Positions 1,571 to 9,349 of a stretch of DNA of 64,000 bases are shown one piece after another. The notes under the pieces were generated by a model, which searched no databases, was not told the DNA's origin, and worked only from the letters and a program-made list of their open reading frames with translations. How positions within the stretch are numbered: the stretch's first letter is position 1; every line of letters begins with the position of its first letter. Source of the DNA: Sneathia vaginalis (GTDB lineage: Bacteria > Fusobacteriota > Fusobacteriia > Fusobacteriales > Leptotrichiaceae). The position numbers and the translations under genes were made by a program. The stretch covers positions 1,045,287-1,109,286 of the forward strand of contig NZ_CP011280.1 in the NCBI RefSeq assembly GCF_000973085.1, in the 5' to 3' direction.

Positions 1571-3700
1571 CTATATCACACAACTTGTGCAAGTGTGGTC
1601 TTCACTTCCTTCCAATATATCCTGTCTTATTCTCAAATAATATATTGATGGACACTTCTTACTAAACGCTCTAATATATGCCTTATTTAAATCTCTTGTT
1701 GTTGCCTTATCTGTCATGAATAGAGTTAATGAAATTGCTTGGTCAACATGTTTTGCTGCAGCTGCTGCTACATCTATTATCCATTCTGATCCTATTTCAT
1801 ACGCCCCTTTTTCATAGTACTTATAGTTCTTATCATCTATCATATATGCAGGTACATATACTCTTCCTAACTTACCTTCTTTTCTAACTTCTATTGGTGA
1901 TACAACTGGTTGTAAGCTTGGAGTACATGATGATACATAACTAATTGATCCTGTTGGTGCAACTGCTAATAGGTGGGCATTAGCAAGTCCAGATTCCTTA
2001 ATATCTTTTGCTAATTTTATCCAATCTTCTTTTGTTGGAAGTTTTAACATATATTTTTCTAATAAGTTCTTTACTTTTTCACTGCTTATTGTAAATTCAT
2101 GTTCTGTATACTTTTTGAAATATTCTCCTGTAGCATATTCACTATCCTCAAATCCTTCAAATACTCCTACATTTTTTGCCAGCTTATTTGACGCCTTAAA
2201 TGCATAATATGCTAGAGTATAGAAGAAAGCATCAGTAAAGTCTACTGCATCATTTGATGCATAATATATTTCATTTGTTGCTAAAAAGCCATGTAAATTC
2301 ATTGCACCTAGTCCAACAGCATGATTTTTTTCATTACCCTTACGTATACTTGGTGCACAGTCTATATCCGTTAATCTTGAAACACTATCAAGACTTACAA
2401 TACAAGTATCTATTATCTTCTCCATATCGCAAGCGTTTTCCATCATCTTAGCAATATTAATAGATCCTAAGTTACAACAAACATCTTCTCCAATATTTTC
2501 AAAACTCAAGTCTTGTTTAAAGGTACTAATCGTATTAACTTGTGCTATTTCAGAACACAAATTAGACATTACTATTCTTCCTTTTTTCTTTTGAGGATTT
2601 CTCATATTTACTGTGTCATCGAATAATATATATGGATATCCTGATTCAAAATGCAATTCTGCTATCGTTTGGAATAGCTTTCTTGCACTAATATATGTCT
2701 TTTTGATTCTATCATCTTTTAGTAGGTTATAGTACTCCTTAGTTATACTAATATCGCTCATAGGTACTCCATACACTCTTTGTATGTCATATGGTGAAAA
2801 AAGTGCCATATCTTCATTGTTTTTTGCTAAGGTAAATGTAATATCTGGTATAACTAAACCTAGGGCTAGTGACTTTATTCTAATCTTTTCATCTGCGTTT
2901 TCTCTCTTAGTATCAAGGAAAGTCATAACTTCTGGATGGTGTACATTAAGATATACAGCCCCTGCTCCTTGACGTTGACCTAATTGATTAGCGTATGAGA
3001 AGCTATCTTCTAATAACTTCATAACTGGCACTATACCTGTGCATTGATTTTGTATTTTCTTAATAGGAGCTCCAAATTCTCTTAAATTTGTTAAACATAA
3101 CGCAACTCCACCACCACGTTTTGATAATTGAAGGCTTGTTGATATTGCCCTTGAGATTGACTCCATATTATCTTCAACTCTTACTAGATAACAAGATACA
3201 TATTCACCACGTTTTTTCTTACCTGCATTTAAGAATGTAGGTGTTGCTGGTTGAAATATACCTTTTAGCATTGCATCTAATATATCATATGCACTTTTAA
3301 TATTACCTTTTGCTAATAATAGGGCGTTCATAGATACTCTATCAGTATATTCTTCAAGATAATATTTACCATCAAAGCTTTTTAAACAGTATGAGTTATA
3401 GAACTTATACGCACCCATAAAATTTAAAAATTTAAAGTTATACTCCTTAGCTTTTTTGAATAGATCTATTACATCTTTTCTATCATACTTATCTAATACT
3501 TCTTCATCATAGTAGTCATTTTCTATTAAATACCCTATTTTTTCTTCTATGCTAGAAAACTTTTTTGTATTAGGTTCTACGTGTTCTTTAAAATACATAT
3601 CAACTGCCTGTTTATCAGCATAAAAATTATGCGTATTATCTTGATTTTGTATCTTTGTAACTGCATTTAACGATATATACTCTTGTGACAAATCTTTCAT
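1571..3700 (-). CDS. nrdE: Class I ribonucleotide reductase, large (catalytic) subunit NrdE
   Basis: Reduces ribonucleoside diphosphates to deoxyribonucleotides in the cytoplasm, using a radical delivered by NrdF. The 709 residues are typical of NrdE, which lacks the long N-terminal ATP cone of NrdA. Catalytic features are visible: Cys170 (YVSCYLVRVEDN), the radical-site motif NLCSEI with Cys382 and Glu384, Cys409 before NLGSIN, and the C-terminal redox pair CTSC at 704-707 for re-reduction by a glutaredoxin-like protein or thioredoxin. It is the last gene of nrdF-nrdI-nrdE; its ATG shares one base with the nrdI TAA stop (TAATG), so the two are translationally coupled. Its partner NrdF is of the metal-free type (see nrdF), so this subunit presumably works with a DOPA-radical small subunit. 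Confidence 0.97.
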   Translation of the reverse strand: MKDLSQEYISLNAVTKIQNQDNTHNFYADKQAVDMYFKEHVEPNTKKFSSIEEKIGYLIENDYYDEEVLDKYDRKDVIDLFKKAKEYNFKFLNFMGAYKFYNSYCLKSFDGKYYLEEYTDRVSMNALLLAKGNIKSAYDILDAMLKGIFQPATPTFLNAGKKKRGEYVSCYLVRVEDNMESISRAISTSLQLSKRGGGVALCLTNLREFGAPIKKIQNQCTGIVPVMKLLEDSFSYANQLGQRQGAGAVYLNVHHPEVMTFLDTKRENADEKIRIKSLALGLVIPDITFTLAKNNEDMALFSPYDIQRVYGVPMSDISITKEYYNLLKDDRIKKTYISARKLFQTIAELHFESGYPYILFDDTVNMRNPQKKKGRIVMSNLCSEIAQVNTISTFKQDLSFENIGEDVCCNLGSINIAKMMENACDMEKIIDTCIVSLDSVSRLTDIDCAPSIRKGNEKNHAVGLGAMNLHGFLATNEIYYASNDAVDFTDAFFYTLAYYAFKASNKLAKNVGVFEGFEDSEYATGEYFKKYTEHEFTISSEKVKNLLEKYMLKLPTKEDWIKLAKDIKESGLANAHLLAVAPTGSISYVSSCTPSLQPVVSPIEVRKEGKLGRVYVPAYMIDDKNYKYYEKGAYEIGSEWIIDVAAAAAKHVDQAISLTLFMTDKATTRDLNKAYIRAFSKKCPSIYYLRIRQDILEGSEDHTCTSCVI

Positions 3701-4092
3701 TACTTCATCCCTTCTAATATTTTCTTTACTTCTTCTACATCCTTTGTAGTTCCTAAAAGCTCAAATTGGTATAGCAAAGGTACATTTATCTTCTTTGAGA
3801 TTATGGGTCCTGCTATACAATATGTATCTCCAAAGTTTGTATTACCCGAAGCTATTACACCACGGCACAACTTCCTATTATTCTCATCATTTAAAAAATG
3901 TATAACTTGTTTTGGTACAGCTCCTCTAGTATCACCATTACCTCCACTGTATGTTGGAACTATTAAAATATATTCTTCATCTACAGTTATACTTTCTTTT
4001 ATCTTAATAGGTATTCTAATTCCATCTACTCCCAATTTATCTACAAATCTTTTTGTATTATTTGATATTGAAGAAAAAAATACTACTCTCAT
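3700..4092 (-). CDS. nrdI: NrdI flavodoxin-like ribonucleotide reductase activator
   Basis: Small FMN protein that supplies superoxide or another oxidant to NrdF during radical generation. The 130-residue length and the flavodoxin fold signature fit: a beta strand and phosphate loop at the N terminus ([12 protein letters not shown]), a glycine-rich [12 protein letters not shown] segment at 50-61 and [12 protein letters not shown] near 83-94, which is diagnostic of NrdI. The ATG follows the nrdF stop codon directly, and the gene overlaps nrdE by one base. In class Ie systems NrdI is required to hydroxylate the NrdF tyrosine to DOPA, so its presence between nrdF and nrdE agrees with the unusual NrdF here. 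Confidence 0.95.
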
Positions 4093-5100
4093 TTAAAACT
4101 CCCAATCCTCATCTTCTGTTTCTTCTGTTACACCCATAACATATGATGAACCATTACCTGAGAAGAAATCATGATTTTCATCTGCTCTTGCAGATAATTG
4201 TGCAAATACTTCTGGCTTTATTTGTGTTTCTTCTTCAGTAAAAGGAGAATCATATCCTAAATTTTGCAAGAATTTTCCAGCATTATACACACTAAATTTA
4301 ATTGCATCTTCTGCTAGAGAAAAGCCTTCATACAACTCATTTAAGTAATCTTTTTCTAAGTCTATTAATTTATACAATAAATCAAAAACAAACTCTTTCA
4401 TTTCTTTTTGCTTTTCAACAGACAATTTCTTTACTTTTTGTTGGTATTTGTATCCACTATAGTAATTATGTATTACCTTATCACGTAGTATTAGACGTAT
4501 AATATCTGATGTATTAGGTAATTTTGCACGTGATGCTAAGTAGAAAGGTAAATAGAATCCTCCGTATAGCAAGAACCCTGGCATAAGTGCTGCTGCTACC
4601 TTTGATTTTAAAGGATCGTCTCCTGTGTAATATGGTATTAATATTTCTGCTCTTTTTTGTAAGCTTTTGGTATGTATAACCCACTCATGTGCTTCCTCTA
4701 TTTGTTCACTTGTACATAGTGTTGAAAATATTGTTCCATATGATCTTGCATGTACAGCAACCATAAATGCAAAGTTAGTATATATTACTTGTTCATGATC
4801 TGTAAGTGAATTTTTAACTTGGGCAACATCACCTATTGTTGCTTGAATTGTATCTAATAGTGTTAATCCTGTAAATGTTCTTGTTATTAACCTTTGCCAA
4901 TTTTCGTCCAATGTATTCCATGATGGTAAATCATTTGATACTGGTATTTTTTCTGGCAACCAGAAGTTTTGAACTACTCTATTCCAAACTTCTAAGTCTT
5001 TTTCATCATCTATTTTATTCCAGTTAACCGATCTCATCGGCTTATTCACACCTTTTGAAAATTCTAAAGGTGAAACTGACTCTTCAAAATATTTTGACAT
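4093..5100 (-). CDS. nrdF: Ribonucleotide reductase small subunit NrdF with V/P/K ligand substitutions (class Ie, metal-free type)
   Basis: Radical-carrying subunit of 335 residues, ferritin-like fold. The usual class Ib metal ligands are three Glu, one Asp and two His. Here Asp83 (LTLLDTIQ), His117 (VAVHARSY) and His211 (DKVIHNYY) are kept, but the three glutamates are replaced: Val114 (normally Glu in FMESVH), Pro174 (ALMPGFLLY, normally LESF) and Lys208 (RDKVIH, normally RDEAVH). The radical tyrosine is kept (Tyr121). Val/Pro/Lys is the signature described for NrdF of Mollicutes, where NrdI converts the tyrosine to a stable DOPA radical without any metal. No second small subunit is seen in the window. 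Own strong promoter at 5131-5159 and AAAGGAG ribosome site. Identity is certain; metal-free chemistry is inferred from the residues. Confidence 0.95.
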   Translation of the reverse strand: MSKYFEESVSPLEFSKGVNKPMRSVNWNKIDDEKDLEVWNRVVQNFWLPEKIPVSNDLPSWNTLDENWQRLITRTFTGLTLLDTIQATIGDVAQVKNSLTDHEQVIYTNFAFMVAVHARSYGTIFSTLCTSEQIEEAHEWVIHTKSLQKRAEILIPYYTGDDPLKSKVAAALMPGFLLYGGFYLPFYLASRAKLPNTSDIIRLILRDKVIHNYYSGYKYQQKVKKLSVEKQKEMKEFVFDLLYKLIDLEKDYLNELYEGFSLAEDAIKFSVYNAGKFLQNLGYDSPFTEEETQIKPEVFAQLSARADENHDFFSGNGSSYVMGVTEETEDEDWEF

Positions 5101-5130: not shown

Positions 5131-5159
5131 ACTATACCACAAAATATATGAAACGTCAA
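5131..5159 (-). promoter_or_regulatory. Promoter of nrdFIE
   Basis: Minus strand -35 TTGACG (5159-5154), 17-bp spacer, -10 TATAGT (5136-5131). The start codon lies about 30 bases downstream behind AAAGGAG. No NrdR-box pair was recognised by eye. Confidence 0.8.
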
Positions 5160-5166
5160 TTTGATT

Positions 5167-6309
5167 TTACACAATATATTGTTGTGTATTATCTATTAGA
5201 TATGCCCCTATAGGTGCTGTGAAAAGTATGGCAATAGCTGAGATTGTAAGCACAAGACTTCCACAATTAAGACCCATAGCTAAAGGTACTCCACCTATAG
5301 CTGCTTGAACTGTAGCTTTTGGTATGTATGCTAACATACAAAATACTCTTTCTTTTGTATTTAAATTTGTTCTTAATACACAAATATATACTGCTAACAT
5401 TCTGAATATTAGTATTAATAATATTAGTAGTATTCCTAATATGAAGTTTTCTTTTAAATACTCTACCTTTATACTTACTCCAACTAGGACGAAAAGTAAG
5501 ATTTCAAATACTTTCCATAAGTTCATATATGAAGTATTTAACTTTTGACATATGTCCTTACTTCTATTTATTGTCATACCCATAACCATTAAGCTAAGTA
5601 AAACAGCTATTGGTAAAAAATCTTGTATTTTAATAGCTAAAAACGATATTGATATTAGGGTAATTGTCATACTAACACTATTCATCTCTATTTTCTTGTA
5701 TATGTACAACATTACCTTACCTAAAATCACACCAAATACTATACCTAAAACTATTGATATTGGAAGTTTAACAAATTCCATATATGATAGGGTATTTTTG
5801 GATAATAGGGTTAAAAAGCTTGTGAAAAACACAATAACGTACACATCATCAACACTAGCACCTGCTAAAATCATTTCTGGTATTCCCTTTTTAATACCCA
5901 CCTTATTCTCTATCATTCTTATCATACGTGGTGAAACAACTGCTGGACTAACTGCTGCTAAAACTGAGCCTAATAAGGCACCTTCTAGATGTGAAATTTT
6001 AAATATCATAGGTGCTATTATACTACAAGCTATCATTTCAAATGTTGCTGGTAAAAAGCATAATAGCATTGCAGGTCTACCTACTTTTTTTAAATTATCT
6101 AAATTAAGTGAAAGACCTGATCTAGTAAGTATTACTATTAATGCAATTTGTCTTAAATCGCTGGATATATTAAATATTTTAGGGTGCATAAATTTAGATA
6201 TGCATATACCTACTATTATCATGCCAATAAGGCCTGGAATCTTAAATTTTTCTAATATTTTTGAAAAAACTAATCCTAATAAAAGGATTATTGCTAAACT
6301 TTGTAACAT
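5167..6309 (-). CDS. Cation:proton antiporter (CPA/Kef-type), under fluoride riboswitch control
   Basis: Polytopic inner-membrane protein of 380 residues, 11-12 hydrophobic helices, with the Na+/H+ exchanger domain layout (GLIGMIIVGICIS in the first third, GALLGSVLAAVSPAVVSP in the middle, resembling the crossed unwound helices of this superfamily). An upstream in-frame TTG exists, but the GGAGGTAA ribosome site lies inside that extension, so ATG 6309-6307 is the start. It sits directly downstream of a fluoride riboswitch. Antiporters of this superfamily are known members of fluoride-resistance regulons beside CrcB/Fluc and CLC-F, so the likely role is relief of fluoride or pH/ion stress. Transported ion is unproven. 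Confidence 0.85.
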   Translation of the reverse strand: MLQSLAIILLLGLVFSKILEKFKIPGLIGMIIVGICISKFMHPKIFNISSDLRQIALIVILTRSGLSLNLDNLKKVGRPAMLLCFLPATFEMIACSIIAPMIFKISHLEGALLGSVLAAVSPAVVSPRMIRMIENKVGIKKGIPEMILAGASVDDVYVIVFFTSFLTLLSKNTLSYMEFVKLPISIVLGIVFGVILGKVMLYIYKKIEMNSVSMTITLISISFLAIKIQDFLPIAVLLSLMVMGMTINRSKDICQKLNTSYMNLWKVFEILLFVLVGVSIKVEYLKENFILGILLILLILIFRMLAVYICVLRTNLNTKERVFCMLAYIPKATVQAAIGGVPLAMGLNCGSLVLTISAIAILFTAPIGAYLIDNTQQYIV

Positions 6310-6320
6310 ATTTACCTCCA

Positions 6321-6413
6321 AAAAAAAATGATTTCTAGCACTAAAAAAATCTTAGTGTAGAAGTCATTAGCATAAAGCAGTTTTGATATTTAATCATGGA
6401 GAACTTCATCTCC
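6321..6413 (-). promoter_or_regulatory. Fluoride riboswitch (crcB motif) with transcription-terminator platform
   Basis: On the minus strand the leader begins GGAGATGAAGTTCTCC, matching the crcB-motif 5' stem (consensus GGNGATGNNGTTCNCC), followed by CTGCTTTATGCTAATGACTTCTAC, which matches the conserved GCTNATGACTCCTAC pseudoknot/junction part. The final segment TGACTTCTACACTAAG can pair with the following CTTAGTG-like strand and TAGAAATCA to give a terminator hairpin ending in nine T. This is the standard fluoride OFF/ON layout: fluoride stabilises the aptamer and frees the terminator strand. A TATAAT -10 at 6425-6420 places the transcript start at about the first G. An A/U-rich insertion after CTCC is unusual. 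Confidence 0.88.
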
Positions 6414-6473: not shown

Positions 6474-7736
6474 TTAATTTCCATTTGTTAAGTTAAATTT
6501 GTTTAATACATAGAATATTAAGCTAATAATTACAGCTACAACACTTGCTAATACCATTCCTTTTAATTGGATACTGAAGAAGTTAACTTCTAGTCCACTT
6601 AATCCTGCGATAAATATTACTGAAGTTAATATTAGATTTTGTGTCTTTGAATAGTCTACTTTTTGGTCAACTAATAGTCTAATACCTGATGCACCTATCA
6701 TTCCGTAAAGTAGGAATGTTACTCCACCTATAACATCACCTGGTATAGTTTGAATTAACATATTAAGTGGTCCTATGAACGCCATACATATTGATATTAT
6801 TGCAGCTCCTGCTATTACATATACTGAATATACTTTAGTTACTGCCATTACCCCTATATTTTCTCCGTATGTTGTTGTTGGAACTCCACCAACTAATCCT
6901 GATAACATAGTAGAAAAGTTATCTGCAAATATACTTCTGTGTAATCCTGGATCTTCTAATAGATTTGTTCCTATTATATTACTTGTTACTACTTGGTGAC
7001 TAACATGTTCTGATGTTATTACCAACAACACTGGTAGCATTGTTAATGATGCACTTAATGAGAATGAAGGTAATTGGAATGCTGGCATTGTGAATAGTTT
7101 TGCTTGTACTACTGGTGTGAAATCTATCATACCAAAGTACATTGCTGCAATATATCCTACTATTATTGAAATTAATATAGGTATAGTAGCGAAAAATTTT
7201 CTAAATATTACTGAACCTATTATTGCTGTTCCTAAAGTAATTAGAAATACTATAGCATCTGCTCTTGTTGCAGTATCTGTTAAGATGTTAGCTCCTATCT
7301 TTCCACCTCTGATAGTTACTCCTGCTAATTCAAACCCTATTAGTGATACAACAGCCCCCATAGATGCTGGTGGCAATACTATATCTATCCAGTTAGTTTT
7401 AAACTTGTAAATTAATAGAGCAAGAATACACCCTAAAAATCCAGTTGTTGCAAATGCTCCTGTTGCATAAGAAAATCCCATGTTTTGTATAATTAGTGTT
7501 CCAACACCTATAAACGCAAAACTTGACCCTAAATATGCTGGTGCTTTAGCTTTTGTTATTAGAATGAATAATAGGGTACCTATACCATTCATCAATAAGA
7601 CTATACCTGGATTTACGTTAAATAATATAGGTACTAAAACTGATGCTCCAAACATTGCAAATGTATGTTGTAAACTAAGTGGTAATAATAGTGCTGCTGG
7701 CACTTTATCCCTAACTCCAATAATTCCTTTAACCAC
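6474..7736 (-). CDS. uraA: Uracil permease (NCS2 / UraA family)
   Basis: Inner-membrane uracil:H+ symporter of 420 residues with about 14 membrane segments. Typical UraA motifs: QHTFAMFGASVLVPIL at the N terminus, a helix-8 region TSEHVSHQ with the substrate-binding Glu, and PTTTYGENIGVMA with the second conserved Glu. Start is GTG at 7736 behind GGAGG; no upstream ATG has a ribosome site. It pairs functionally with upp at 42 kb (uracil to UMP). A 19-codon leader peptide and a terminator precede it, so expression is probably attenuated. Function is confident at family level; xanthine transport is a less likely alternative. Confidence 0.92.
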   Translation of the reverse strand: MVKGIIGVRDKVPAALLLPLSLQHTFAMFGASVLVPILFNVNPGIVLLMNGIGTLLFILITKAKAPAYLGSSFAFIGVGTLIIQNMGFSYATGAFATTGFLGCILALLIYKFKTNWIDIVLPPASMGAVVSLIGFELAGVTIRGGKIGANILTDTATRADAIVFLITLGTAIIGSVIFRKFFATIPILISIIVGYIAAMYFGMIDFTPVVQAKLFTMPAFQLPSFSLSASLTMLPVLLVITSEHVSHQVVTSNIIGTNLLEDPGLHRSIFADNFSTMLSGLVGGVPTTTYGENIGVMAVTKVYSVYVIAGAAIISICMAFIGPLNMLIQTIPGDVIGGVTFLLYGMIGASGIRLLVDQKVDYSKTQNLILTSVIFIAGLSGLEVNFFSIQLKGMVLASVVAVIISLIFYVLNKFNLTNGN

Positions 7737-8374: not shown

Positions 8375-9295
8375 TTAATAGCTATTTTCATATTCCTTTA
8401 TTATTCTAACTATTTCCTTTTCCTTAGGAGGTAATATATCCATTATATATGTTGAAGGTTTGTACCAAGATTTTTTAGAAAAATATTCCTTGTATTTAAC
8501 GTCAGTAAAAATATATCCCCTTCTTGCATAGAAGGTATTACGTATTATTCCAAGTTCATCTTTATTAAAATTATTTAAATAATCATAGTTCCCCTTATTT
8601 ATTACTTCGTCATATACCGTATCTGCTGTTGTTAGATCATCATCTGTATAGTCTGTAGATTCTGTTGTAGATTCTGTATTTTGACTTGTATCTTCTGTAC
8701 TATTTTGTGTATTTTCTGAATAATTTTGTGTTTGTTCGTATGTTTGTGTTTCCATATCCTTACCCTTTAAATCACTAAAAATATTTGTTGCAAAAGGAAA
8801 AAATGATATTAAGACTGCGTATTCTATAATACTAATTATGCTAAATATTCCACCAATTATTTGGGTGATAATAAAGATAATAGCCTTTGTATTTTCTCCA
8901 CTATCTACTATCATTTTGTATTTTACTATATCTATAGTATTATCTATAGGTATATATCCATAAATCATAAGTAGTGCTTTTGAGTATTCATCTGCTGGAA
9001 CTAGTCCGTTTAAAAGCAATCTTCTTGTATATGCCTTATTATACCAAAAACCTAAATATATTCTGTATAAAAAAATACCAATGTACATTAAAGCATATAT
9101 CACAATACTACCACTAAAGGCCATTAAAACACATATTACAAATACAAGTATTTCTGATAAAAGCACTTCCAAGAACCCTATAATATCAAGTCTAAATAGT
9201 GGAACTAGCGACCCAAAATATACTGTAATATAGCTAAATCCTACAGCAGAATTCTTAATTTCTGTTTCACTTTTTAAAATTATTCTCTTTGCCAT
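8375..9295 (-). CDS. Membrane protein with C-terminal YARHG domain
   Basis: A 306-residue protein. Residues 1-170 contain several hydrophobic helices (FLEVLLSEILVFVICVLMAFS and others) and a GFWYNKAYTRRLLLNGLVPADEY segment resembling DUF2628-like membrane domains. A threonine/serine/glutamine/asparagine-rich linker follows (about 185-230: QTYEQTQNYSENTQNSTEDT and onward), then a C-terminal YARHG domain (IRNTFYARRGYIF ... YFSKKSWYKP), an extracytoplasmic domain of unknown role. ATG 9295 is preferred over an upstream ATG, because a consensus promoter lies within the upstream extension and GGGAG is placed correctly for 9295. Confidence 0.75.
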   Translation of the reverse strand: MAKRIILKSETEIKNSAVGFSYITVYFGSLVPLFRLDIIGFLEVLLSEILVFVICVLMAFSGSIVIYALMYIGIFLYRIYLGFWYNKAYTRRLLLNGLVPADEYSKALLMIYGYIPIDNTIDIVKYKMIVDSGENTKAIIFIITQIIGGIFSIISIIEYAVLISFFPFATNIFSDLKGKDMETQTYEQTQNYSENTQNSTEDTSQNTESTTESTDYTDDDLTTADTVYDEVINKGNYDYLNNFNKDELGIIRNTFYARRGYIFTDVKYKEYFSKKSWYKPSTYIMDILPPKEKEIVRIIKEYENSY

Positions 9296-9320
9296 ACATA
9301 ATACTCCCGTTTTTTCCTTT

Positions 9321-9349
9321 ATTATATACCAAAAAAACTTCAACTTCAA
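9321..9349 (-). promoter_or_regulatory. Promoter of the YARHG-protein gene
   Basis: Minus strand -35 TTGAAG (9349-9344), 17-bp spacer, -10 TATAAT (9326-9321). It is divergent from the deaminase gene at 9414. Confidence 0.7.

What the first reader, a model, noticed from the sequence alone, without database searches (positions are those of the whole stretch)
4093..5100. NrdF with the Val/Pro/Lys triad of metal-free class Ie ribonucleotide reductases, in a fusobacterium-like genome
Seen: of six class Ib metal ligands, Asp83, His117 and His211 are kept, while the three Glu are replaced by Val114, Pro174 and Lys208; the radical Tyr121 is kept and nrdI lies between nrdF and nrdE. Known: the same VPK pattern defines the Mollicutes NrdF2 that carries a DOPA radical and no metal; the other known variant is QSK. 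Inference: this organism can make DNA precursors without iron or manganese at the small subunit, an advantage under host metal starvation, and may have received the operon from Mollicutes or a common donor. No other small subunit is in this window.
Basis: partly seen in the sequence, partly recalled or inferred. Interest (0 to 1): 0.85.

Follow-up and report, generated by a model that had tools for sequence, protein, structure and literature searches.

The report
Metal-free ribonucleotide reductase in a fusobacterium
This small anaerobic, Sneathia-like bacterium carries the known 'metal-free' type of the enzyme that makes DNA building blocks in oxygen, and in its lineage that type has replaced the usual metal-containing one, which raises the testable question of why an anaerobe keeps it.

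Summary
The gene lies on the minus strand, 5100 to 4093. It encodes a 335-aa NrdF with D83, H117, H211 and Y121 kept and V114, P174 and K208 in place of the three ligand glutamates. It heads an nrdF-nrdI-nrdE operon (5100-1571). It is a class Ie (R2e, VPK) small subunit: best solved matches are R2e structures (6gp2 family, E 3e-191), it has the VPK state at 51 of 51 columns separating VPK from class Ib, and it falls in a fully supported VPK clade. It is the genome's only class I small subunit and only class I/II large subunit. The genome also encodes nrdDG, the oxygen-sensitive, iron-sulfur-dependent class III enzyme, so this is the oxygen-proof half of a pair. Among 98 genomes of the phylum only four, in two related genera, carry VPK; 28 of the other 29 of the family have a distant small subunit, full-ligand in all 24 read. 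The metal-free operon therefore replaced it here. The donor is unresolved; direct transfer from TGA=Trp Mollicutes is unlikely. VPK R2e is a known kind, already surveyed across GTDB: this is a new member. Most notable is the replacement in an organism that, if Sneathia vaginalis, is reported to grow only anaerobically.

The parts
4093..5100 (-). nrdF: class Ie (VPK) ribonucleotide reductase small subunit, 335 aa; D83 V114 H117 Y121 P174 K208 H211; W47 and Y320 of the radical path kept
3700..4092 (-). nrdI: activating flavodoxin, 130 aa, with SISNNT, PTYSGG and GNTNFG motifs
   Evidence: TIGR00333, 1.8e-57; PF07972, 1.7e-47
1571..3700 (-). nrdE: class Ib/Ie-type large subunit, 709 aa; C170, NLCSE (C382), CCNLGS, IYYLR tyrosine pair and C-terminal CTSC present
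   Evidence: (TIGR04170, 1.7e-298); only PF02867 gene of the genome
5131..5159 (-). candidate promoter of nrdF: TTGACG (5159-5154), 17-base spacer, TATAGT (5136-5131); same layout in G001
   Evidence: read from the upstream sequences printed; consensus match only
5169..5184 (-). candidate NrdR box 1 (CAACAATATATTGTGT, 2 mismatches)
   Evidence: single matches of this kind are at chance level, the tandem pair at the promoter is not
5137..5152 (-). candidate NrdR box 2 (TTCATATATTTTGTGG, 5 mismatches), 32 bases from box 1, inside the promoter spacer; tandem pairs at 31-32 bases also upstream of nrdF in G001 and G013
   Evidence: no pair as good in 3000 random 300-base stretches for each of the three

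Best explanation
The window holds a complete, selected class Ie (VPK) ribonucleotide reductase operon, nrdFIE, acquired horizontally. In this lineage it took the place of the metal-dependent class I enzyme kept by the rest of the family. Inferred mechanism, by homology to the characterised enzymes: reduced NrdI turns O2 into superoxide (HO2), which is channelled into NrdF and hydroxylates and oxidises Y121 to a DOPA radical held by D83. K208 stands in for the metal-bound water as proton donor. The radical leaves through W47/Y320 to the NrdE tyrosine pair and the active-site cysteine C382, so no Fe or Mn is needed in NrdF. Inferred role: with NrdD/NrdG as the anaerobic, oxygen-sensitive iron-sulfur enzyme, NrdEF supplies dNTPs for replication or repair during oxygen exposure. 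Shown here: sequence, residues, operon, family placement, genome content, replacement pattern. Inferred: metal-free state, DOPA, role.
For: Residues. Closest solved chains are R2e structures including radical-state 8bt3 and ground-state 8bt4 (PMC7615503, PMC11846895). The functional residues W52, D88, Q91, Y126, Y163, L183, F187, K213 and Y325 of M. florum R2e are all present at the expected positions, offset 5 (residues). 51 of 51 VPK-versus-Ib diagnostic columns. nrdFIE order, which PMC11846895 found in virtually all VPK genomes and no QSK genome. VPK clade 100/100 with QSK branching outside. Sole PF00268 and sole PF02867 gene. NrdD plus adjacent NrdG. VPK genera form a 100* rpoB clade, with one genome lacking any R2, nested among metal-type R2 genomes. 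Purifying selection.
Against: No metal analysis, mass spectrum, EPR or activity exists for this protein; all chemistry is transferred from homologs at about 80% identity. PMC3535699 reports that S. amnii grew only anaerobically, so an O2-dependent activation is hard to place in its normal growth. The identity of the organism is itself inferred.
Confidence: 0.92

Rival explanations
1. An ordinary metal-dependent class Ib NrdF whose three ligand changes are errors or tolerated variants.
For: The protein is homologous to class Ib NrdF (about 55% identity) and NCBIfam names it class 1b.
Against: The same three residues occur in three related genomes and throughout a set of 47 VPK sequences; 51 of 51 diagnostic columns are VPK, not Ib. 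Three of the six metal ligands, including both bridging carboxylates, are lost (ligand roles from general knowledge of class I R2).
Confidence: 0.03
2. A decaying or non-functional relic, with dNTPs made by class III NrdD alone or salvaged.
For: The organism probably grows only anaerobically (PMC3535699); the related genome G007 has NrdD and no R2 at all, so the class I enzyme can be lost.
Against: All three genes intact, dN/dS about 0.05 for nrdF against G001, all catalytic and radical-path residues kept, promoter and tandem NrdR-type boxes conserved in the sister species.
Confidence: 0.04
3. The operon came directly from Mollicutes, as the first reader suggested as one option.
For: 99 of 298 Mycoplasmatales-order genomes searched carry it, with up to 84% NrdF identity; g4 (G004, G013) joins Mollicutes in the NrdE tree (96*).
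Against: The Mollicute nrdF genes found read 2-8 in-frame TGA as Trp; the window gene has 7 Trp, all TGG, so a direct transfer would arrive full of stops. The window pair is not inside the Mollicutes in the NrdE or concatenated trees, and NrdE outside the family is nearest a Lactobacillales sequence (72%).
Confidence: 0.12
4. The two VPK genera of this family acquired the operon independently, rather than once with a later loss in G007.
For: NrdE and concatenated trees separate g1 from g4 (0% of 200 bootstrap trees keep them together); flanking genes are different.
Against: NrdF alone unites them (83, not starred) and the AU test does not reject one clade (p 0.22).
Confidence: 0.45

Closest known systems
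Mesoplasma florum class Ie R2 (PDB 6gp2, 8bt3, 8bt4)
   Same: Same length class, V/P/K triad, Y126/D88/K213/W52/Y325 equivalents, nrdFIE operon; best structural-database match (E 2.8e-191)
   Different: Different phylum; the Mollicute relatives searched use TGA for Trp; the window's genome also has class III NrdDG
Other solved VPK-type R2e chains (6ebo, 7mmp, 7mmr; Aerococcus urinae by my recollection) and the Streptococcus pyogenes R2e
   Same: V/P/K triad, standard genetic code, nrdFIE
   Different: In S. pyogenes the Ie operon sits beside a second, metal-dependent class I enzyme (PMC8463856); here it is the only class I enzyme
QSK class Ie R2 (Gardnerella vaginalis; 8rag/8rah by best match)
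   Same: Same DOPA chemistry reported (PMC11846895), vaginal habitat and pairing with class III
   Different: Q/S/K instead of V/P/K, 54% identity, other gene orders; branches outside the VPK clade
Class I R2 of the other Leptotrichiaceae-like genomes (L005-L028)
   Same: Same protein family and slot in metabolism
   Different: About 30% identity, all six metal ligands kept (DEHYEEH), nearest solved relatives are Bacillus-type NrdF chains (chain origin from general knowledge)

Membership tests
Class Ie ribonucleotide reductase, VPK type | Three ligand Glu replaced by Val, Pro, Lys with Asp and two His kept | tested here: met
Class Ie ribonucleotide reductase, VPK type | Radical Tyr with Asp and Lys partners and W/Y radical path | tested here: met
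   Y121, D83, K208, W47, Y320
Class Ie ribonucleotide reductase, VPK type | Gene order nrdFIE with NrdI | tested here: met
   rule from PMC11846895
Class Ie ribonucleotide reductase, VPK type | Placement inside the VPK clade, derived relative to QSK and Ib | tested here: met
   100/100 branch; 51/51 diagnostic columns
Class Ie ribonucleotide reductase, VPK type | No metal in the active protein | not testable with these tools
   needs ICP-MS or a structure
Class Ie ribonucleotide reductase, VPK type | NrdI- and O2-dependent DOPA on the Tyr, radical by EPR, activity with NrdE | not testable with these tools
   needs expression, MS, EPR, assay
Class Ib ribonucleotide reductase | Six intact metal ligands (Asp, 3 Glu, 2 His) | tested here: not met
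   three of six replaced
Class Ie ribonucleotide reductase, QSK type | Gln, Ser, Lys at the three positions | tested here: not met

The most novel reading that the evidence does not exclude
In a bacterium that grows only without oxygen, the DOPA enzyme is a stored device: Y121 is hydroxylated during rare oxygen exposure, and the lasting modification then lets NrdI re-make the radical from traces of oxygen (or another oxidant), giving dNTP synthesis exactly when NrdD is destroyed and host metals are withheld.
Probability: 0.15. Interest if true: 0.65.

Novelty: new member of a known kind. Interest (0 to 1): 0.4.

Why it matters
It places the metal-free ribonucleotide reductase in a further bacterial setting: a Leptotrichiaceae-like lineage of a reduced, probably urogenital fusobacterium. 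There it appears to have replaced, not supplemented, a metal-dependent class I enzyme. With only class Ie and class III enzymes present, the organism gives a clean two-enzyme test of what an O2-activated, metal-free RNR does for an anaerobe. It also makes NrdEF/NrdI a candidate point of weakness under oxygen in a bacterium linked to vaginal disease.

Tried and rejected
The 2018 discovery papers are not held, so their claims are taken from later papers. The published supplementary table of VPK species could not be read, so I cannot say whether this very species is listed among the roughly 11 VPK genomes outside Mycoplasmatales and Lactobacillales. A glutaredoxin/NrdH search gave only sub-threshold matches; no nrdH adjoins the operon. 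The donor and the number of acquisitions stay open after three trees and an AU test. Structure prediction was not run because solved structures of about 80% identity exist.

Full report
Observation. The stretch 4093-5100 encodes, on the minus strand, a 335-aa NrdF; the plus strand there is closed. nrdI (3700-4092) and nrdE (1571-3700) follow on the same strand with no gap or a one-base overlap. Family models confirm all three.

Family. The best solved matches are the class Ie chains 6gp2/6gp3/8bt3/8bt4 (E 2.8e-191) and 9r5l, then 7mmr, 7mmp and 6ebo; 8rag/8rah (the QSK type, by their place in the list and PMC11846895) and class Ib chains score far lower. PMC7615503 names the residues that work in M. 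florum R2e: W52, D88, Q91, Y126, Y163, L183, F187, K213 and Y325. All have identical counterparts in the window protein at minus five. Across 47 VPK, 7 QSK and 65 class Ib sequences, 51 columns separate VPK from Ib at 95% or better; the window has the VPK letter in all 51, with its own family left out of the definition. Only three ligand states occur in the set: DEHYEEH, DVHYPKH and DQHYSKH. NrdE keeps the thiyl-cysteine motif NLCSE, the partner cysteines, the tyrosine pair and the C-terminal CTSC; NrdI keeps its flavin loops. The order nrdFIE is the one that PMC11846895 found in virtually all VPK genomes and in no QSK genome, and all VPK loci with enough flank examined here show it.

Genome. 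The window lies in a single contig of 1,330,224 bp, 99.9% complete. It has one PF00268 gene and one PF02867 gene, both in this operon, and one NrdD followed directly by a radical-SAM NrdG. So the organism has one oxygen-requiring and one oxygen-sensitive RNR. Size and G+C (28.6% in the window) fit Sneathia amnii/vaginalis (about 1.34 Mbp, 28.3%; PMC3535699). The name is an inference, since genome handles bear none.

Distribution and replacement. In 98 genomes of the phylum only G000, G001 (same genus), G004 and G013 (a second genus) carry VPK NrdF (86-93% identity to the window), each as its only PF00268 gene. The other 28 genomes of the family with an R2 have a distant one (about 30% identity); all 24 that were read have complete ligands, and the one compared with solved chains is nearest Bacillus-type NrdF. 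G007 has no R2. All 33 family genomes have a match to NrdD, in one of them only a weak one. In an rpoB tree, g1, g4 and G007 form a 100* clade nested among the metal-type genomes. The simplest reading is loss of the metal-type enzyme at the base of this clade and gain of nrdFIE once or twice.

Origin. The VPK clade is 100/100 with QSK outside. Within it, NrdF alone unites the four family sequences (83), while NrdE and the concatenation separate the two genera; one clade is not rejected (p 0.22). Mollicute genes carry several TGA=Trp codons, whereas the window's nine Trp codons in nrdF and nrdE are all TGG, which argues against direct transfer from them. Flanking genes differ between the genera, and within the genus only the adjacent antiporter is shared.

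Regulation. A candidate promoter (TTGACG-17-TATAGT) precedes nrdF, with two NrdR-like boxes 32 bases apart, one in the spacer; the sister species has the same layout and G013 has a pair at 31 bases. Single boxes are at chance level in such A+T-rich DNA; pairs as good were not seen in 3000 random stretches. No pair was seen at G004 or at nrdD. This suggests ordinary NrdR control rather than metal control, but the nrdR gene was not sought, and the NrdR consensus is from general knowledge.

Mechanism. By homology to experimentally studied VPK enzymes (PMC8463856, PMC7615503, PMC8902622), NrdI supplies a reduced oxygen species that converts Y121 to a DOPA radical without metal, and K208 is the proton donor. 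For the role, PMC12288474 proposes for Fusobacterium nucleatum that its class I enzyme covers for oxygen-killed NrdD. The same role with a metal-free enzyme fits here. PMC3535699 reports growth only without oxygen, tolerance of brief air, and no recognisable superoxide dismutase gene. None of these steps is shown for this protein.

Novelty. VPK R2e is a known kind. PMC11846895 counted 128 VPK genomes in GTDB, 93 Mycoplasmatales and 24 Lactobacillales, leaving about 11 elsewhere whose names the main text does not give; this species may be among them. Text searches found no paper that discusses it in Sneathia or other Fusobacteriota. I file it as a new member of a known kind; the replacement pattern and the anaerobic setting are the interesting parts.

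Noticed in passing
window 5167-6321 (-): A Na+/H+ exchanger-type antiporter gene ends 66 bases upstream of nrdF; a 56% identical gene sits in the same place in the sister species G001 but not in G004/G013.
   Followed up: partly
G007 (C36 and whole genome; L187): A 99% complete, 1.2-Mb relative inside the same rpoB clade has NrdD but no class I small subunit at all: a possible class III-only organism.
   Followed up: partly
L034 and L038 (Streptococcus ictaluri, Lactobacillus kitasatonis genomes): These genomes carry a second PF00268 gene besides the VPK one, unlike the Mollicutes and the window's genome.
   Followed up: no
L037 (Atopobium sp. Marseille-P4126): A VPK nrdFIE operon in an Actinomycetota genome that groups with Lactobacillales sequences; the only one found in 300 genomes of its class.
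   Followed up: no
window 8375-9349 (-): Membrane-type protein of 324 aa with a C-terminal YARHG domain, function unknown.
   Followed up: no
window 6474-7736 (-): Uracil permease gene two genes upstream of nrdF: another pyrimidine-supply gene near the operon.
   Followed up: no
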